64,000 bases of DNA from Mesorhizobium loti (lineage in GTDB: Bacteria > Pseudomonadota > Alphaproteobacteria > Rhizobiales > Rhizobiaceae): contig CP050293.1 in the NCBI GenBank assembly GCA_014189435.1, forward strand, positions 7,011,001-7,075,000. Reading direction: 5' to 3'. Of this stretch, positions 20,846-27,558 are shown piece by piece; within the stretch, counting starts at the first letter, position 1, and every line of letters starts with the position of its first letter. The notes under the pieces are model-generated. The model searched no databases, was not told where the DNA came from, and saw only the letters and a program-made list of their open reading frames with translations. The position numbers and the translations under genes were made by a program.

Positions 20846-20982
20846 GTGCCGGCCGCACATTCGTTGGGTCTGTGGAACGTTGAGCGCGTCGTCTTGACCC
20901 GCCGGCTAAATGCAGACTTCGACTGAGGCCGTGCAAAATCCGATTGCCGCCGTCCGTTGGGGCGATGGGTTCGAACCCCGGG

Positions 20983-21288
20983 CTACCGCCACCGACCAGA
21001 TCGACCCCTCCATCCGCCCCCGAAACGACCGCCACCAGCAACCAACCGGATGATTAGGAGAAGTACAATCGCGCCGACGGTGGCATTGACGATCAAGCTG
21101 ATCGTTCCGCTCCCGAGATGGACGCCCAAGCGGGGCAGCAGCCAATCCCCGATAAACGCGCCGATGATTCCAATTGCGATGTCCCCGATTAGACCAAAGC
21201 CTGAGCCCCGCACGATCTTTCCGGCCAACCATCCCGCAATAAGGCCGACCACCAATATGACTATGATGCTCTCGTTCGTCAGATGCAT
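20983..21288 (-). CDS. GlsB/YeaQ/YmgE family stress membrane protein
   Basis: 101 residues from ATG 21288. Three hydrophobic helices: ESIIVILVVGLIAGWLAGKI, then GFGLIGDIAIGIIGAFIGDW, then SLIVNATVGAIVLLLIIRLV, ending in a Gly/Arg-rich tail. The GWLAGKIVRGSGFGLIGDI signature identifies the family. It is a second copy beside the one at 16317, with a longer basic tail. No exact EcfG promoter was found directly upstream. Confidence 0.85.
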   Translation of the reverse strand: MHLTNESIIVILVVGLIAGWLAGKIVRGSGFGLIGDIAIGIIGAFIGDWLLPRLGVHLGSGTISLIVNATVGAIVLLLIIRLVAGGGRFGGGWRGRSGRWR

Positions 21289-21467
21289 AGTGATCCTCCG
21301 GGCCTTCGTTTTCGCAGCGCGATTTCATGTCTGCAACCAGCGACTAGTTCCATAGCCGATCCTCTATCCCCACGAAAGCCAAAGCGCGTCTGTCGTTCGA
21401 CGCGACCGCCGCGGCGCCCCAAAGCAATAGGACAGTCGACAGCATGATCATCAATTGCGACCGCTAC

Positions 21468-22220
21468 TTATCGAACCGAGTCAGGGATCAACTTCTGGAA
21501 GATCGCATCGTTCTTCGCCCGCCATGCTTCATCTGCGAGCCACTGATATTCCTGGTCGGGCATCAACGGAACGGCTTTCACATCGGCACTGGAGATGCGC
21601 AGGTAAAAACTGTTCCGCTCCTCATCGACTTGCATATACCGAAGCGGGACGACGATGCTGTCTTTTCCGGCGATGAAAAAGCCGCCTGAGGCAATAACTG
21701 CGTAGTCCCATCGGTCCTTGGTTCCAATTACGACGTTGCGAACTTCGCCAACGATCTTGTCGTCCGAACTGCGAACCTCGGAGCCGACGATCTCGTCGAC
21801 ACGCAGACCGGGTCCAAGTTCGTCGATATTGATTAGAGGACGTGCGCCTGGAGCACCGCGATTGCCCTGAACTTCACCACCTTGATGCTGTTGTGGTTCT
21901 TCGGCGGCCACCTGTTCATCGGCAAGGTCCTCGTCGTTCCCCCCAAGCTTCGCCATTGATGGCGCGGCAATCAGCTGTCGGATATTGGCGAGCAAGCGTT
22001 CGCAGTCGTCCTGTAGGCCATACGACCACAGCAGGAAGGCGGCATCCCTAAGGGTTCGCAGGTCGCGAACGAGATAGCGATTTTCCGGATTGCGCAATTC
22101 CGGGCTCTTGAGGACAGCTTCTTCGAGCTTCGCATCGGATATATTACAGACGGCGAACGCCGGTTGGACGCCAAGCCCCAGCAACAACGCCACCGGCGCC
22201 GCGATCCAGACAAATCTCAT
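21468..22220 (-). CDS. Exported PRC-barrel protein
   Basis: 250 residues from ATG 22220. Signal peptide MRFVWIAAPVALLLGLGVQP to AFA-VC. The N-terminal mature part (about 25-110) is helical with two Cys, one at the very start and one in LQDDCERLL. After a Gln/Glu-rich linker, a PRC-barrel spans about 135-225 (VDEIVGSEVRSSDDKIVGEV, IASGGFFIAGKDSIVVPL). The C-terminus repeats a helix (YQWLADEAWRAKNDAIFQKL). An exact EcfG promoter upstream marks it as part of the stress set. The role is not known. Confidence 0.8.
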   Translation of the reverse strand: MRFVWIAAPVALLLGLGVQPAFAVCNISDAKLEEAVLKSPELRNPENRYLVRDLRTLRDAAFLLWSYGLQDDCERLLANIRQLIAAPSMAKLGGNDEDLADEQVAAEEPQQHQGGEVQGNRGAPGARPLINIDELGPGLRVDEIVGSEVRSSDDKIVGEVRNVVIGTKDRWDYAVIASGGFFIAGKDSIVVPLRYMQVDEERNSFYLRISSADVKAVPLMPDQEYQWLADEAWRAKNDAIFQKLIPDSVR

Positions 22221-22313
22221 TAAAATTCCCCATCGGCGGCTTTCCTTGACTTCGTGCTTGGAGCAGGCAAATCAGGTGGAAATGTACCGCAAGACATTTG
22301 TTCAGCTTGAAAC

Positions 22314-22338
22314 AACGGACCGAATGCATTTCGGTTCC
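22314..22338 (-). promoter_or_regulatory. EcfG-type general stress promoter
   Basis: Minus strand: GGAAC (22338-22334), 16 bases, CGTT (22317-22314). The predicted start near 22307 gives an 86-nt leader to ATG 22220. Confidence 0.65.
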
Positions 22339-22432
22339 GGCAGCTTAATCATTGAGTGACAGAACATTTACTGGCTCCGCCGTGTCACGCGGCGCGAGTC
22401 CTCGCCACTCCCTGCGCAGGAATGGACGACCC

Positions 22433-23404
22433 CTAGAACCAACCCCGCCATTTGAACCACGCCAGCGGAATAATTGCGCTGAGAGCGATGATCCCCAAAC
22501 CATAGGGATAGCCGAATGCCCAGTCGTATTCGGGCATGTGCTTGAAATTCATGCCGTAGATACTCGCCGCTAGGGTGGGAGGAATGCCGACGATCGAGAC
22601 GATGGTGAGGATTTTGAAGATGTCGTTTTGCGCAATGCCAATCAATCCAACCATGGCGTCGAGGAGGAACTGCACCTTGTCGGAGAGATGAACCTCGTAA
22701 TTGTCGAGCGACGCTACGTCGAGCTTGAGGCCGTCCATACGCGACGCGAGTTCTCCATCACCCCAGCCTGCGGTCATCCCGCATGCGAAATCGATGGCGC
22801 GTCCAAGGGCAAGCAACGCATCGCGCTTTTCCGAGAGAGCGTCACCCAGCCTGCCGACATGGCGGAGTTGGGCTCGAATAACATTGTTTGAGCGGATCGC
22901 CTTACGACCTTGGCTATCCGGGACATGAAAGGCGGTTGCAGAGAGGGTGCGCAGGTCCGTCGCCGCCTGCTCAAGGCCGTCGGCGAGGCGGTCGACAAGC
23001 TCATCACAGAGATCTAGGAACACCTCAAGGCTCGAGGTCGGCGGCTCGCCGGAATCGGTGAAGCGCCTAGCAACCGCGTCAAAGGCCGGCAAAGCCGAGA
23101 AGCGAACGGTGATCAAACGGTCGCGCGACAGCACAAAGCCGAGGGGAGCAACCAGCGGCGGGCCGCCTTCGACATGGGTGACTATCGGAACGCTCATGGT
23201 AAGCACGCCGTCGCGGGCTTTTAGTCGGCTGGAGCTTTCGATCTCGCTGAGATTTTCCCGGCTTGGGAGGGCAACGCCGGCCACCCCCTCGACCTCTTTC
23301 ACCTCGACCGTATCGGGGTCGATAAGATCCAGCCAGAGCGCCCTTATGGTCGCTTTCGGGGAGTTGCTCTGCGGATATATGCTCAACATTTCCGGAAGTG
23401 CCAT
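22433..23404 (-). CDS. CorA-family magnesium/divalent metal transporter
   Basis: 323 residues from ATG 23404. A long cytoplasmic N-terminal domain of alpha/beta fold and a stalk helix (DLCDELVDRLADGLEQAATD) lead to two C-terminal membrane helices. The selectivity motif YGMNFKHMPEYD follows the first helix (GIPPTLAASIYGMN), as in CorA and ZntB. It forms a pentameric inner-membrane channel for Mg2+ or other divalent ions. The last residues are basic (WFKWRGWF), as usual. It is on its own, in the same direction as the PRC-barrel gene 212 nt downstream. Confidence 0.9.
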   Translation of the reverse strand: MALPEMLSIYPQSNSPKATIRALWLDLIDPDTVEVKEVEGVAGVALPSRENLSEIESSSRLKARDGVLTMSVPIVTHVEGGPPLVAPLGFVLSRDRLITVRFSALPAFDAVARRFTDSGEPPTSSLEVFLDLCDELVDRLADGLEQAATDLRTLSATAFHVPDSQGRKAIRSNNVIRAQLRHVGRLGDALSEKRDALLALGRAIDFACGMTAGWGDGELASRMDGLKLDVASLDNYEVHLSDKVQFLLDAMVGLIGIAQNDIFKILTIVSIVGIPPTLAASIYGMNFKHMPEYDWAFGYPYGLGIIALSAIIPLAWFKWRGWF

Positions 23405-24159
23405 GAAAGGCCGGCTTGCGTGGACGGGACTTAGGCAGTGAGCCAGATCGAACTGAGGGTCGGTGTACGAAGCAGGCTTCTGGCCATTCCTAAGCCGTCC
23501 AGTTGGACAATCCTAACCGTTGAGCCCTCCCATTTTGAACGACTGGTTGAGGGTAATGTTCCAGACCTTCTCATCTCGGAAGTTGTAAGTGCGGCAATCG
23601 TCAGTGGAACGCGTCGATTTCTCCGATGGTGCGCCCCTCGATTCCGGGATTGCCCGCGCACTTCCCTGATCGCCGTTATGAGCCGGCATAAGCAGTAATC
23701 GGCGACTGAGTGCGCCTTTGGTGGGAGGGCAGCACGCCTGGGCTGTTGCTATGCCCTGCTCGGATCGAAAAGCCGCCTCTGCATTTGTTGGGCCGGGGCT
23801 CCCTTCGCCTCCGTGCGTACCCCGATAGTGGCAGAACGGCTACACCAGCGCTCACCGGGGATCTCCATCGTTTATGATTTCACGTACTTGTGCCGAATAG
23901 CCGAGCGCCGATTACTTTTGCGCTTTCGTAGAGAGAAGGTCGCGCAAAGATGAGGCGATCGCTGCGTGATTACGGCTTTCACAGTACAGGCCGCGCTCCA
24001 GAAGATCCGTCTCCGCCACTGCCGACGTCCAATCCTGATAGGCGCCGGTCACGAACAGCTGCGGAGAGTTTAAGCCCTCCAAGCAGTTACGAAATCGGGG
24101 AACTGGATCTGGCATTGGCTCTCGCGAGCGAAATTGCCTAGTCGGGCCGTATTCATGGC
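23405..24159. other. Gene-poor stretch with a response-regulator remnant
   Basis: About 750 bases. On the minus strand at 23912-24010 the frame GLYCESRNHAAIASSLRDLL matches the C-terminal end of the response regulator at 7825-8190 (NAAIAGSLRDLV). Nothing upstream of it remains. The rest shows no gene. Confidence 0.45.
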
Positions 24160-24275
24160 ATGAAAAACCCGCTGCCGGGAGGAGGTGGCAGCGGGCTCTA
24201 TATCAAGCTCACCACGGGAGGAGGTGTGGGTCGCTTTGCATCGGCATCGCATCTGGGAGGAGTAGATGGCCGATC
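24160..24275 (-). ncRNA. Small RNA with three anti-Shine-Dalgarno hairpins (cuckoo / alpha-r14 type)
   Basis: On the minus strand three hairpins follow each other: 24268-24250 (CATCT/AGATG stem), 24229-24212 (CCAC/GTGG stem) and 24195-24168 (CCCGCTGCC/GGCAGCGGG stem). Each loop exposes CTCCTCCC. The third hairpin is followed by TTTTTCA and is the terminator. CUCCUCCC pairs with ribosome-binding sites, and stacked hairpins displaying it are the mark of the alphaproteobacterial cuckoo RNAs, to which rhizobial alpha-r14 (NfeR1-like) RNAs belong. The 5' end is probably 5-60 nt beyond 24270. Confidence 0.7.
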
Positions 24276-24623
24276 TGCGTAACATCGAGTGATGCGAGGC
24301 ATTGTGCAATGCACAATTTTGCATGGCTGCCGTGTGGATCCAGACGCCGTTCTCTCCCAGTCACTGTCCTGAGGGTGGGAGGCCGATTTGCCTCCTCCTC
24401 GAAGAGGGCAACAAAAAGTTGAGGGCGCAATTTCCAAAACCAAAAGTTGACGCCGCCATCGAGGTAGGATATGAATAATCCTGTCGATATTGCTTGCTGA
24501 GCTTTGGTTATCGCGCGTTTGGCACCGCGCCCTGAACGAACCTTCCCTTCAAAATCGTCATCGTCACAGATCGGCAGCGCTCTCGCGTTGCCGTCGTCCA
24601 ATATTGCTATGAAAGGGTTCATC
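24276..24623. other. Spacer between the small RNA and cspA
   Basis: Holds the promoter of the minus-strand small RNA (within about 24270-24340, with a TGTGCATTGCACA palindrome at 24306-24318) and the leader of cspA on the plus strand. A minus-strand open frame across 24330-24688 has fair composition but runs into the RNA hairpins and lies antisense to the cspA start; I do not call it. Confidence 0.45.
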
Positions 24624-24833
24624 ATGACCACTGGCACAGTTAAATGGTTCAATTCCACCAAGGGCTTCGGCTTCATCCAGCCTGACAACGGCGGCGCCGA
24701 CGCCTTCGTTCATATCTCTGCCGTCGAACGCGCCGGAATGCGCGAAATCGTCGAAGGTCAGAAGATCGGCTATGAAATGGAACGCGACAACAAGTCGGGC
24801 AAAATGTCGGCCTGCAACCTGCAGGCCGTCTGA
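24624..24833 (+). CDS. Cold shock protein (CspA family)
   Basis: 69 residues from ATG 24624, preceded by AAAGGG. A single cold-shock OB-fold with RNP1 (KGFGFIQP) and RNP2 (DAFVHIS), opening MTTGTVKWFNSTKG. It binds single-stranded RNA and DNA and opens secondary structure. A long upstream leader is usual for this family and fits the gap before it. A perfect terminator follows. The neighbouring small RNA and this gene are divergent. Confidence 0.95.
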   Translation: MTTGTVKWFNSTKGFGFIQPDNGGADAFVHISAVERAGMREIVEGQKIGYEMERDNKSGKMSACNLQAV

Positions 24834-24894
24834 TCGGTTCAGCTTTCCTTTGACCACGGATGTACTGGCACTGTTGAAAGCATGAGACCAAGCG

Positions 24895-24925
24895 AGGTCA
24901 GGCAAAATTTGCCTGACCTTTTTTA
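24895..24925 (+). terminator. Rho-independent terminator of cspA
   Basis: AGGTCAGGCAAA and TTTGCCTGACCT (12-bp perfect arms) around a single base, followed by a run of T. Confidence 0.9.
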
Positions 24926-25003
24926 TGTCCGGCCGACCGACCCACTAATTTGCGCGTGTATCGCCGCCTCTTGTCGATGGCCGTCAAGATCAAGGAGATC
25001 TGG

Positions 25004-25279
25004 ATGACCGAACCAACGAGCGAGCTTCAGACTATCAATACCGCATGGCAAATCGCCATCCAGGAAATCCTGCGAATGGTCGTGCGAGATATTTACAGGA
25101 CGGGCGACGAAACGGTGTTCAAGTCGCATATCAAGCGCATAGAAGAGGCTGCGGTGGACAGCATCTACACTGGCCTCATGCTCCGAGGCACGGACGAATG
25201 GACCGAACTGCTCGTCAAGGAAAAAGCCAGCAATTTCGTCACTACGCTCCTGACATCCTTCACCTTCGATAGGGTTTGA
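25004..25279 (+). CDS. Hypothetical protein
   Basis: 91 residues from ATG 25004, with AAGGAGA 8 nt upstream, which decides against the earlier start at 24950. The sequence is helical and amphipathic (TINTAWQIAIQEILRMVV, HIKRIEEAAVDSIYTGLM, ASNFVTTLLTSFTF), like a small soluble bundle. No family recognised. Confidence 0.65.
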   Translation: MTEPTSELQTINTAWQIAIQEILRMVVRDIYRTGDETVFKSHIKRIEEAAVDSIYTGLMLRGTDEWTELLVKEKASNFVTTLLTSFTFDRV

Positions 25280-25534
25280 GACCAAAGCCAGTCTTCGCGA
25301 ACTCGCGCGAGGCGTGGCCCAGCTTTTCCTCGCCTTCGAGAATTTCCATTGGCGCGCAACCTGGCTGATCCACTCCGCCTTGGCCCTTCGGCACCACCGC
25401 AGCGCCTGCACTCGCTCCAATTGCGTTTAGGCATGTCGCCGTTCAACGAGCTGTGCGCCGCGAAGCTGGACTTCGGCTCGCCGGGAGCGCCTGACTGAAC
25501 TGGATTTGTCTGCCCTTCTCCTGCAAGAATGTAG
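25280..25534. other. Intergenic stretch
   Basis: About 250 bases. A minus-strand frame ending at 25269 (…EKLGHASREFAKTGFGLKPY) looks coding-like for some 50 residues but has no start and an upstream stop; it may be a fragment or another frameshifted gene. Confidence 0.3.
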
Positions 25535-25651
25535 CTACGCCAAATTTACCCCGCCGAGTTGCTTGGTCACCTCGCGGAAATCGTCATGCGCTTTATCAAG
25601 AGCTTCGTCGCCGCTTTCCTGCATCAAGCCGGCGGGGGTCTCTTCCACCAT
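25535..25651 (-). CDS. Small ORF overlapping the DUF2062 gene
   Basis: 38 codons from ATG 25651, which lies inside the last codons of the DUF2062 gene in another frame. The product (MVEETPAGLMQESGDEALDK, ending QLGGVNLA) is acidic and helical and protein-like. The overlap suggests translational coupling. It could equally be the shifted C-terminal tail of the DUF2062 protein if one base were missing near 25640. Confidence 0.4.
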   Translation of the reverse strand: MVEETPAGLMQESGDEALDKAHDDFREVTKQLGGVNLA

Positions 25652-26280
25652 AGCCTTCCAGGCGGCCTAGGGAGAGTGGGCAGTAGCGCGTCGTCTTCTT
25701 GCTGAAGAAGTCGACTCGCCTTTTCGGCCAACCGTTTGCTTCTCTGTTCGCGGAAGGCAGTCATGCACCAGAGCGTGATGCCATAGAACAACAGGCCAAA
25801 GATCAACCCAAGCGGCACCGCGCCGATCAGCATCGGCTTCAGCACCGGTCCCCACAATTGCGATAAGGAAAGGTTATGCAGCATCTCACTGAGATCCGCA
25901 GGCGGGCCATGACTTGGCAGGCGGTTGTGCAACATGATCTTGCCGGTCTCCCAGGATGCACCCCACAAAAAGGGGAGCGTCAACGGATTGCCGGCAACGA
26001 CTGCGCTCAGCGCTGCCGCCACCAGGTTTCCTGCAATCAGCCAGCAGAGGACGGCGGCAATGGCGAAGTGGAAACCCACCGGGAAGAATGAGGCGAAGAC
26101 CCCCGCCGCGACCCCAGCCGCCACGGCGTGTGGAGTGGCGTCCAGCCGCAGGATGCGCTTCGAAAAGTACTGAAGCGAGCGCGAGAAGGAACTGCGTGGC
26201 CACATATAGGTGCGTAAGCGCTCGAAGAGGCCATCAGGGTTGCGCCGTCGAAAGAGCACTCTCGTTCCTAACTTCGCCAA
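25624..26280 (-). CDS. DUF2062 family membrane protein
   Basis: 218 residues from ATG 26280. A basic N-terminus (MAKLGTRVLFRRRNPDGLF) leads to the DUF2062 core: TPHAVAAGVAAGVFASFFPV, FHFAIAAVLCWLIAGNLVAA and the NPLTLPFLWGASWETG box, then a last membrane helix (MLIGAVPLGLIFGLLFYGIT) and a basic C-terminus. It is an inner-membrane protein of unknown function, common in Proteobacteria. An exact EcfG promoter lies 47-71 nt upstream. Confidence 0.85.
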   Translation of the reverse strand: MAKLGTRVLFRRRNPDGLFERLRTYMWPRSSFSRSLQYFSKRILRLDATPHAVAAGVAAGVFASFFPVGFHFAIAAVLCWLIAGNLVAAALSAVVAGNPLTLPFLWGASWETGKIMLHNRLPSHGPPADLSEMLHNLSLSQLWGPVLKPMLIGAVPLGLIFGLLFYGITLWCMTAFREQRSKRLAEKASRLLQQEDDALLPTLPRPPGRLWWKRPPPA

Positions 26281-26326
26281 CGCTGCGGACTTGTCCGCCG
26301 GAATGAAATCGGCTCTAAAAACAAAA

Positions 26327-26351
26327 AACGCGGGCTGCGTTGCTTTGTTCC
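26327..26351 (-). promoter_or_regulatory. EcfG-type general stress promoter
   Basis: Minus strand: GGAAC (26351-26347), 16 bases, CGTT (26330-26327). Predicted start near 26320, 40 nt before the DUF2062 start. Confidence 0.65.
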
Positions 26352-26396
26352 GGTTTGTCAGGTTTAGAAAATATTCGGTAATAAGGGTGATCGCGT

Positions 26397-27005
26397 GTGA
26401 AATCGGTTAGGGTCAAATCGGACGCCCTCAAAGCTAGTTTGGCGTTGCTTGCGCTGGCGCTCGCCGGCTGCGCGGCATTGGGAGGCAAGCCTGCGCCGCT
26501 CGATACGTTCGAGCTGTCCGCCCCCTCGATCGATGCGCGTGGCCACAGCCGCCGCCAGATCCTGATCGCCCAGCCTTCCGCGCTCAAGGCGCTGGACAGC
26601 CAGAATATCGTCATCAAGCCGTCCGACGGCTCGATCCAGTATCTCAAGGGCGCGCAATGGGCCGATCGGCTGCCGCTGATCGTGCAGGCCAGGCTCGCCG
26701 AAACCTTCCAGCGCTCCGGCAGCTTTGCCGGTGTCGGCAAGCCGGGCGAGGGGCTGGCGATCGACTATCAGGTGATCGTCGAGGTCCGCTCCTTCGAAGT
26801 CCGCGTCAATGGCGGCGAGCATGCCGAGGTAAATCTGTTCGTGCGCATCCTGAACGACCGCAACGGCGAAGTGCGCGCTTCGAAAAACTTCACCGCATCC
26901 GCGCCCGTCGCGGGCAGCGGTAATCCGGCCTATGTCAACGCGCTGGACAGCGCTTTCGGCGAGGCGGCCAAGAATATCGTGCGCTGGACGGACACGACGA
27001 TCTGA
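26397..27005 (+). CDS. ABC-type transport auxiliary lipoprotein (PqiC/YmbA-like)
   Basis: 202 residues from GTG 26397. A signal peptide ends in the lipobox LAGC (Cys about 23), so the protein is lipid-anchored, probably in the outer membrane facing the periplasm. The mature part follows the family (PF03886-type) pattern: LDTFELSAPS, then ILIAQPSALKALDSQNIVIK, YLKGAQWADRLPLIVQARLA, and a beta sheet with DYQVIVEVRSFEVRV. It normally works with MlaE/MlaF/MlaD-like permease genes in lipid transport, but none is adjacent here. A decayed copy lies at 20581-20845. Confidence 0.8.
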   Translation: MKSVRVKSDALKASLALLALALAGCAALGGKPAPLDTFELSAPSIDARGHSRRQILIAQPSALKALDSQNIVIKPSDGSIQYLKGAQWADRLPLIVQARLAETFQRSGSFAGVGKPGEGLAIDYQVIVEVRSFEVRVNGGEHAEVNLFVRILNDRNGEVRASKNFTASAPVAGSGNPAYVNALDSAFGEAAKNIVRWTDTTI

Positions 27006-27253
27006 TCCGGATAAGCCAACGGTTGCGCTGCGTCCGATGCAAATATGCGTCGTATGAGCGGATTAGCATCTGGATTGGTAATTGAGACTCGCCTTAGCGT
27101 CAGGTGCTGCGCCAAGGTGAGGATCCAATAATCCGAAGACACCAGCGACTTTGAAGCACAAAGGGGTTTGCCCTCCCCAAAGGCGACGTAGGCAGGAGGT
27201 GCAAGTCAAGCGCAGCGTGACCGCGCGGCCGCGGACGGCTTATCGTGCAGGGT

Positions 27254-27331
27254 TTATCGCAGTCCTAGGAAGCCTAAGATAAAAAGGACAATTACGATCG
27301 CGCCAACAATCCAAATAATCCGATTCATCAT
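27254..27331 (-). CDS. Very small hydrophobic membrane protein
   Basis: 25 residues from ATG 27331 (or 27328): MMNRIIWIVGAIVIVLFILG then FLGLR. It is a single membrane helix with a short charged end; rhizobial genomes carry many near-identical copies of this kind. GAAAG precedes the start. GGAAC-N16-TGTT at 27427-27451 on this strand is one base off an EcfG promoter. Function unknown. Confidence 0.6.
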   Translation of the reverse strand: MMNRIIWIVGAIVIVLFILGFLGLR

Positions 27332-27420
27332 CTTTCGCTTTCTGCTAAAGGAGCCCGCCAAATGAGCGACGGATGGCAATGCGGGCCCGCCTCTTACGCT
27401 AAGAAGCGGCATTCGAATAA

Positions 27421-27558
27421 CTACCTCAACAGTCCACAACCACTAAGGTTCCAAAGCTCGTTCGCACTCCACACCCCTGAGTAACCACCAAATCTGAATC
27501 GCCACGCCCTGCCGGGGGCGCCAGTCGGCATTCGTCTACTGCTGATCTGATCGCTCAT
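27421..27558 (-). CDS. Possible small protein
   Basis: 45 codons from ATG 27558 with AGGAAG 9 nt before it (MSDQISSRRMPTGAPGRAWR...). Composition is Arg/Gly/Trp-rich and unlike its neighbours. No family; the good ribosome-binding site is the main support. Confidence 0.3.
   Translation of the reverse strand: MSDQISSRRMPTGAPGRAWRFRFGGYSGVWSANELWNLSGCGLLR

What the first reader, a model, noticed from the sequence alone, without database searches (positions are those of the whole stretch)
24160..24275. Three-hairpin anti-Shine-Dalgarno small RNA (cuckoo/alpha-r14 type)
Three consecutive minus-strand hairpins, otherwise unlike each other in stem sequence, each present CTCCTCCC in the loop, and the last ends in an oligo-U tract. 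Independent stems with a conserved loop are strong evidence for an RNA selected to pair with ribosome-binding sites. Such RNAs (cuckoo RNAs, NfeR1-like alpha-r14 RNAs) are known in alphaproteobacteria, but this locus, next to cspA and a response-regulator remnant, may be an unannotated copy.
Basis: partly seen in the sequence, partly recalled or inferred. Interest (0 to 1): 0.7.

Follow-up and report, generated by a model that had tools for sequence, protein, structure and literature searches.

The report
Extra αr14 anti-Shine-Dalgarno small RNA gene
This is very likely a working copy of a known rhizobial small RNA gene, whose three hairpins each display a sequence that can block the ribosome-binding site of messenger RNAs; it is a new copy of a known kind, with its own conserved promoter.

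Summary
Window 24161-24278 (minus strand) matches Rfam ar14 (RF02344) over its whole length, 62.0 bits against a gathering score of 58.8. Three hairpins each expose CUCCUCCC; UUUUU follows the last. In 89 distinct same-genus sequences the loops stay fixed while stems covary: 10 of 11 pairs of hairpin 2 change on both sides.

The genome holds nine ar14 loci over the cut-off. Three sit in tandem behind a DUF1127 gene, as published for cuckoo CIN1 loci. This copy is a single NfeR1-type gene beside cspA, in a duplicated segment partly found on a plasmid too.

Best explanation: an LsrB/VtlR-activated αr14/NfeR1-type sRNA that blocks ribosome-binding sites. No transcript was tested. New member of a known kind. 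The 'response-regulator remnant' got no support.

The parts
24161..24278 (-). ar14 (NfeR1-type) sRNA gene, full-length Rfam match RF02344
   Evidence: cmscan 62.0 bits, gathering score 58.8, model positions 1-123 of 123
24240..24274 (-). hairpin 1, loop CUCCUCCC at 24255-24262
   Evidence: fold; motif; 99.1% and 100% of cells paired in its two helices, 3 of 11 pairs with double changes
24205..24236 (-). hairpin 2, loop CUCCUCCC at 24216-24223; 4+4 pairs here with an internal loop
   Evidence: fold; 10 of 11 pairs show changes on both sides among 89 sequences, 93.2% of cells paired
24163..24197 (-). hairpin 3, loop CUCCUCCC at 24177-24184, with U tract 24163-24167: terminator-like 3' end
   Evidence: fold, coordinates; helix 100% paired in 89 sequences. 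The simple terminator scan did not list it (its loop limit is 8, this loop has 10)
24281..24286 (-). putative -10 hexamer GATGTT (TATGAT, TAGTTT and the like in other ar14 copies)
   Evidence: 17-nt spacing to the -35; the consensus scan listed no sigma-70 site
24304..24309 (-). putative -35 hexamer TTGCAC
24302..24316 (-). perfect inverted repeat TTGTGCATTGCACAA overlapping the -35; contains the generic LysR-type T-N11-A
   Evidence: 6 exact places in the 8.33-Mb genome, reversed-pattern control 0; six-base arms kept at the same offset in 10 of 11 class B/C copies, L027 lacking it
24321..24333 (-). LsrB/VtlR-type box A-N3-CA-N3-ATGC (= GCAT-N3-TG-N3-T on the + strand), 59 nt upstream of the hairpin-1 base
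   Evidence: exact at -59/-60 in 36 of 100 distinct ar14 promoters, 1 exact match outside -75..-40 in their 350 nt; consensus from PMC8844928
24624..24833 (+). cspA-type cold-shock gene, divergent from the sRNA
   Evidence: Pfam CSD in ORF 24504-24833; its ATG at 24624 read from the sequence
24793..24927 (+). ar35 (RF02346) element overlapping the cspA end and its terminator
   Evidence: cmscan 49.0 bits, gathering score 45; terminator 24894-24920
20852..27476 (.). segment with an 88-90% copy, in pieces, at C1:2.523-2.531 Mb of the same genome, carrying a second ar14-cspA pair (pieces 20852-21467, 21472-25595, 25593-27476)
   Evidence: blastn; its ar14 scores 65.0 bits

Best explanation
It is a functional, NfeR1-type member of the αr14 sRNA family. 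A transcript of about 112 nt starts near 24275 from its own sigma-70-like promoter, activated by a LysR-type regulator of the LsrB/VtlR kind bound at 24321-24333 and probably modulated by a factor on the inverted repeat over the -35. It ends at the third hairpin plus U tract. Each of the three loops offers CUCCUCCC for pairing with purine-rich Shine-Dalgarno sequences (GGGAGGAG), so the RNA blocks ribosome loading on several mRNAs, mainly of nutrient-uptake (ABC transporter) genes. Being one of nine loci, it adds dosage or a separate transcriptional input to a shared seed. Shown here: anatomy, family match, loop constancy with stem covariation, promoter conservation. Inferred: transcription, LsrB binding, target blocking.
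For: Full-length ar14 match. 9 loci over cut-off in this genome; in 14 control genomes 0 over cut-off (9 of them had weak matches at E 10 or better). Covariation: 97.5% of cells paired, 15 of 33 pairs with double changes, 102 double-change cells against a shuffled mean of 31.3 (0 of 500 shuffles reach it), slid controls at most 21. Three loops placed in 104 of 106 loci examined, all three exact in 99. In three loci elsewhere in the genus the similarity runs from 24159 to 24334/24335 only, i.e. from the terminator to just past the LsrB-type box. LsrB/VtlR consensus at -59/-60 in 36 of 100 distinct promoters, and at -61 in 2 of 5 own-genome ar15 matches. Published mechanism for the S. meliloti homologue: redundant anti-SD loops, LsrB activation, NtrC repression, ntrB silencing (PMC10746234, passages). 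GGGAGGAG-N4-9-ATG occurs 28 times in this genome against 5 for the reversed pattern; 8 of those 28 ORFs are ABC-transporter parts (20 of the 28 were put to Pfam).
Against: Lowest score of the nine ar14 loci over the cut-off. Hairpin 2 has three consecutive non-pairs against two in its paralogue L008 (read). The -10 is poor, and a consensus scan found neither a sigma-70 site nor this terminator. In S. meliloti only one of six αr14 copies is reliably detected by Northern (PMC7143759, passage), so this copy may be silent. One class B relative, on the AR02 plasmid (L024), has a damaged loop 2. The box is in opposite orientation to that of the two ar15 promoters; 63 of 100 ar14 promoters lack the exact box in -75..-40, and 25 of 100 lack even its core, among them own copies L006 and L007. 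The published NfeR1 box lies further upstream (-72 to -60 or -57). I did not search for an NtrC site with a tool. The ABC-transporter count has no background rate.
Confidence: 0.8

Rival explanations
1. A silent or decaying duplicate: the copy was carried along in a duplicated, partly plasmid-borne segment and is no longer expressed, though still recognisable.
For: Lies in a segment duplicated in the genome at 88-90%; lowest ar14 score; weakened hairpin 2; in S. meliloti only one of six copies is reliably detected by Northern (PMC7143759, passage); the CorA-cspA arrangement exists without ar14 in G019.
Against: All three loops, the U tract and the promoter block GCCATGCAAAATTGTGCATTGCACAA are intact in both own-genome cspA-linked copies, while the flank toward CorA (window 23400-24158) is only 74% identical between them.
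Confidence: 0.15
2. It is a CIN1-type cuckoo RNA, processed from a DUF1127 operon.
For: Same loop motif and same Rfam model; the genome has such a locus (three tandem ar14 hits behind a DUF1127 ORF).
Against: This copy is single, its upstream neighbour is the divergent cspA and not a DUF1127 gene, it has its own promoter block, and its hairpins resemble L004 and L006-L008, not the tandem copies.
Confidence: 0.03
3. Coding or plus-strand feature: GGGAGGAGG repeats as ribosome-binding sites, or a small protein gene.
For: Overlapping ORFs exist on both strands.
Against: No Pfam match in the two overlapping minus-strand ORFs tested, 24070-24324 and 24209-24688; loop spacing departs from 39/39 in 23 of 104 loci, 18 of them by one base, which would break a frame; stems covary as RNA pairs.
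Confidence: 0.01

Closest known systems
NfeR1 / αr14 (Rfam RF02344 ar14), Sinorhizobium meliloti
   Same: Three hairpins, the same ultraconserved loop, variable stems, sigma-70-type promoter, LysR-type box upstream, multicopy (descriptions from passages of PMC10746234 and PMC7143759).
   Different: Beside cspA in a duplicated segment; box nearer the core promoter; extra perfect inverted repeat over the -35; hairpin 2 of this clade is diverged (B+C clade, branch 0.51). I did not compare it with the S. meliloti NfeR1 letters.
Cuckoo RNAs / CcsR1-4 with DUF1127 (CIN1 locus; R. sphaeroides, SmelA075/SmelA099)
   Same: CCUCCUCCC loops in two to four hairpins (PMC3927594 section 2.7; PMC10253847 passages).
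   Different: Those of CIN1 are clustered and cotranscribed with a DUF1127 gene; this copy is single with its own promoter. The original cuckoo paper (PMC4615179) is not held and was not read.
AbcR1/AbcR2 (αr15, Rfam RF02345 ar15)
   Same: Anti-SD sRNA, AbcR1 under LsrB/VtlR; an ar15 copy in this genome has the same consensus at -61 and a one-mismatch version of the inverted repeat.
   Different: Other family; the Rfam scan of the window gave no ar15 match over the cut-off.
ar35 / SmelB053 and cold-shock 3' UTRs
   Same: Neighbouring element at the end of cspA; the link of such elements with cold-shock 3' UTRs is described in PMC3927594 (passage; that ar35 equals SmelB053 is my reading, not from a call).
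   Different: A separate element on the other strand.

Membership tests
αr14 / ar14 (RF02344) | Covariance-model score above the curated cut-off | tested here: met
   62.0 against 58.8 bits, full length; modest margin
αr14 / ar14 (RF02344) | Three hairpins, each with CCUCCUCCC unpaired | tested here: met
   loops 2 and 3 carry the full 9 letters, loop 1 reads ACUCCUCCC, i.e. 8 of 9
αr14 / ar14 (RF02344) | Stems variable but pairing kept | tested here: met
   mainly hairpin 2; hairpins 1 and 3 are nearly invariant within the genus
αr14 / ar14 (RF02344) | Terminator-like last hairpin | tested here: met
   Stem-loop plus UUUUU; not listed by the simple scan, whose loop limit is 8
αr14 / ar14 (RF02344) | Own sigma-70 promoter with conserved upstream LysR-type element | tested here: inconclusive
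   Box and 17-nt spaced hexamers present and conserved but the -10 is weak and the scan is negative
αr14 / ar14 (RF02344) | Transcript of about 115-122 nt that represses SD-containing mRNAs | not testable with these tools
   Needs RNA and reporters
NfeR1 proper (orthologue of the S. meliloti gene) | LsrB and NtrC sites and orthologous position | tested here: inconclusive
   LsrB-type box found; NtrC site and synteny with S. meliloti not tested; L004, behind a LacI-type gene, is another NfeR1-type copy of this genome
Cuckoo CIN1 locus | Cotranscribed with a DUF1127 gene, clustered copies | tested here: not met
   Divergent cspA next door, single copy; the tandem DUF1127 locus is elsewhere

The most novel reading that the evidence does not exclude
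Mesorhizobium has evolved a separate, segment- and plasmid-borne clade of αr14 RNAs (seven cspA-linked copies plus four at other loci among those examined). It keeps the same anti-SD loops but has a rewired promoter: an LsrB/VtlR box plus a perfect 15-nt operator across the -35, which an AbcR-type sRNA carries with one change and which is present at only six exact sites in the genome. One regulator would then switch two families of anti-SD sRNAs together, and the sRNA with its 177-bp promoter unit would spread as a small regulatory cassette.
Probability: 0.35. Interest if true: 0.5.

Novelty: new member of a known kind. Interest (0 to 1): 0.3.

Why it matters
αr14 RNAs tune nitrogen metabolism and symbiosis in S. 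meliloti, where one of six copies is reliably detected. A Mesorhizobium genome with nine loci, which share loops but differ in promoter, is a ready test of why bacteria keep many copies of an RNA with one and the same seed: dosage, or separate inputs. The operator shared in near-identical form with an AbcR-type sRNA gives a concrete binding site to test.

Tried and rejected
Rejected: a chance cluster of CTCCTCCC (one search gives an ordinary count but a far too tight cluster; covariation). A protein-coding reading. A plus-strand gene (promoter block and U tract belong to the minus strand). A phage origin (no match among 50,697 phage records at E 1e-5). The 'response-regulator remnant'.

Led nowhere: the consensus promoter/terminator scan (one search listed neither this promoter nor this large-loop terminator). 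The original cuckoo paper and the 2017 NfeR1 paper are not held. Among the titles and abstract starts listed by the paper searches (capped lists of 8 to 25) I saw no paper on a cspA-linked αr14 copy in Mesorhizobium; of the papers cited I read passages only, and one section of PMC3927594, and most subscription papers are missing from the library. The M. huakuii sRNA paper (PMC5596092, passages) names NfeR1, but the word ar14 does not occur in its main text.

Rows dropped: of the 106 NfeR1-type loci examined, 2 (L189, L223) gave no triple loop. They came, whose list is cut off: 30 loci given by that call (10 of them without ar14), 80 more that I chose from its list, mostly in order of E-value, two, and five own-genome loci. 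Alignment A1 holds 89 of the 95 distinct bodies; the four tandem or phasin-linked own-genome copies (L001-L003, L005) and L185 and L222 (shifted loop or hairpin) were left out. The promoter count uses 100 distinct of 105 promoters; L223 was missing. These sequences are related, so counts are not independent events, and its shuffles keep single-base composition only. A csp gene motif nearby was looked for in 28 loci only, so seven cspA-linked copies is what was found, not a census. One search scored at most 47 candidates per genome with strict filters, so its counts are lower bounds. Of the 28 SD-site ORFs 20 were put to Pfam; the 8 left out are seven short ORFs of 42-103 residues (two of them seemingly the same) and one of a single codon.

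Full report
WHAT IS THERE. The minus strand of window 24161-24278 matches the Rfam family ar14 (RF02344) over its whole length, at 62.0 bits against a gathering score of 58.8. It folds into three hairpins (24274-24240, 24236-24205, 24197-24166), each with CUCCUCCC in the loop, and UUUUU follows the third. The fold is better than all 200 dinucleotide shuffles (z -3.2). The 8-mer itself is not rare in the window (4 found, 2.47 expected); its triple clustering is.

ORGANISM AND COPIES. The nearest named relatives are Mesorhizobium: the best four loci, and 14 of 14 plasmid records. The window's genome (8.33 Mb, three contigs) has nine ar14 loci over the cut-off; this one scores lowest. In a survey of 61 genomes all 37 of the same genus, the own one included, had a match at E 0.001 or better; the own genome had nine matches, the others one to six, and 37 of 61 had a match over the cut-off (counts are lower bounds). 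The nine are: a tandem triplet behind a DUF1127 ORF (the layout described for CIN1 cuckoo loci); one behind a phasin gene; one behind a LacI-type gene (L004); one on contig C3 (L006); L007; and the two cspA-linked copies, this one (L009) and L008.

SELECTION ON THE RNA. I examined 106 NfeR1-type loci of the genus. In 104 all three loops could be placed, in 99 all three were exact. The loci were found by similarity to the sRNA, so loop presence is partly built in; pairing is not. On 89 aligned distinct sequences 97.5% of pair cells are standard pairs, 15 of 33 pairs have changes on both sides, and 102 cells carry such changes against a shuffled mean of 31.3 (0 of 500 shuffles) and at most 21 in slid controls. 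Hairpin 2 carries most of this: 10 of its 11 pairs show double changes. Hairpins 1 and 3 are nearly invariant in sequence, more than pairing alone asks for. Loop spacing departs from 39/39 in 23 of 104 loci, in 18 by one base, which argues against a conserved reading frame.

PROMOTER. Three loci elsewhere in the genus (L149, L150, L151) share with the compared window stretch only 24159 to 24334/24335, that is from the terminator to about 60 nt upstream of hairpin 1. At the edge of that block lies GCATGGCTGCCGT on the plus strand (24321-24333), an exact match to GCAT-N3-TG-N3-T, the consensus given for LsrB/VtlR and placed at -61 to -49 of the AbcR1 promoter (PMC8844928, passage). Counting either orientation, the exact consensus sits at -59 or -60 from the hairpin base in 36 of 100 distinct promoters (37 within -75..-40), and 74 of 100 fit if one A may be T; 1 exact match lies elsewhere in the 350 nt of all 100, and promoters shuffled by single bases give 0.8 on average, at most 4. 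Against it: 25 of 100, among them the own copies L006 and L007, lack even the core. All matches are in one orientation, opposite to that of two own-genome ar15 (AbcR-type) loci, which carry the consensus at -61; those are 2 of 5 ar15 matches, one of them (C1:724834, 38.4 bits, below the cut-off of 40) about 0.8 kb from a LysR-type gene. Positions here count from the hairpin base, not from a mapped start. Between box and hairpin lie TTGCAC (24304-24309) and GATGTT (24281-24286), 17 nt apart, in register with similar hexamers of other copies. The -10 is weak, and the consensus scan is negative.

A SECOND OPERATOR. In the two cspA-linked copies and their clade the -35 is embedded in TTGTGCATTGCACAA (24302-24316) or a close form. 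This perfect inverted repeat occurs exactly at six places in the genome, with 0 for the reversed pattern: the two ar14 copies and four others, upstream of a GntR-type gene (L234), of two paralogous ORFs of 324 residues (L235, without a Pfam or NCBIfam match; L237, not scanned), and at L232. A one-mismatch version lies before the strongest ar15 locus (C2:315417). Six-base arms are intact at one offset in 10 of the 11 copies of this clade. Which protein binds is not known; the core fits the generic LysR T-N11-A.

PHYLOGENY AND CONTEXT. In a tree of 98 promoter-plus-sRNA sequences the seven cspA-linked copies found (in 6 of the 146 genus genomes searched, whose list is cut off) form one group (99/94), joined with four copies from other loci on a branch with 100/100 support and length 0.51 (the bootstrap had not fully settled). 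The surrounding segment (CorA-like gene, sRNA, cspA with ar35 end, DUF2062 gene, ABC auxiliary lipoprotein gene) is duplicated in the genome, in pieces, at 88-90%. Its part 21472-25362 also lies on a 95-kb plasmid of strain AR02, in a stretch that also holds insertion-sequence and toxin-antitoxin genes. Genome G019 has CorA and cspA in the same order without the sRNA: about 737 bases between 23634 and 24371 are replaced by about 55, and no ar14 match was found in the 16 kb taken from it.

HOW IT WORKS. For the S. meliloti homologue NfeR1 the three loops act redundantly by pairing with ribosome-binding sites, LsrB activates and NtrC represses its promoter, and ntrB is a tested target (PMC10746234, passages). 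The anatomy here is the same, so I infer the same mechanism. In this genome GGGAGGAG at 4-9 nt before ATG occurs 28 times, against 5 for the reversed pattern; at 15-20 nt it occurs 15 times, against 4. Twenty of the 28 ORFs were put to Pfam; eight are ABC-transporter parts (five binding proteins, two permeases, one ATPase) and three are AMP-binding enzymes. This agrees with the published ABC-transporter targets, but no background rate was taken.

AGAINST. No transcript was tested. The copy has the lowest score of nine and the weaker hairpin 2 of the two cspA-linked own-genome copies; only one of six S. meliloti copies is reliably seen by Northern (PMC7143759, passage); and one plasmid relative has a damaged loop. 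A silent duplicate remains the main rival (0.15).

VERDICT. It is an additional, probably functional αr14/NfeR1-type gene: known kind, new member. The least expected result is the clade-specific promoter with two operator-like elements, one of which recurs with one change at an AbcR-type sRNA.

Noticed in passing
window 24793-24927 (+): ar35 (RF02346) match over the end of cspA and its terminator; cold-shock 3'-UTR elements related to a rhizobial sRNA are described in PMC3927594 (passage).
   Followed up: partly
L232, L234, L235, L237 (G000 C1:975064, C1:3178471, C1:3971453, C3:492860): Four further exact copies of the 15-nt inverted repeat TTGTGCATTGCACAA, upstream of a GntR-type gene and of two paralogous 324-residue ORFs; the one of the two that was scanned (L235) has no Pfam or NCBIfam match. 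Possibly one regulon.
   Followed up: partly
L250 (G000 C2:315291-315396) and L254 (C1:724834-724947): AbcR-type (ar15) loci with an LsrB/VtlR consensus at -61 (L254 scores below the family cut-off); the three other ar15 matches of the genome lack it.
   Followed up: partly
L137 / L001 (G000 C1:2077683-2078162): Three tandem ar14 RNAs directly behind a DUF1127 ORF, a CIN1-type cuckoo locus, next to what looks by eye like a trmFO gene.
   Followed up: partly
L135 / L005 (G000 C1:5039373-5039488): An ar14 copy behind a phasin gene, with hairpins unlike the NfeR1-type ones.
   Followed up: no
window 20852-27476 and L132: A duplicated genome segment at 88-90% identity; its part 21472-25362 also sits on plasmid pMspAR02a.
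   Followed up: partly
L143 (G019 C3): CorA-cspA arrangement without the sRNA: about 737 bases missing, about 55 in their place; insertion and loss not told apart.
   Followed up: partly
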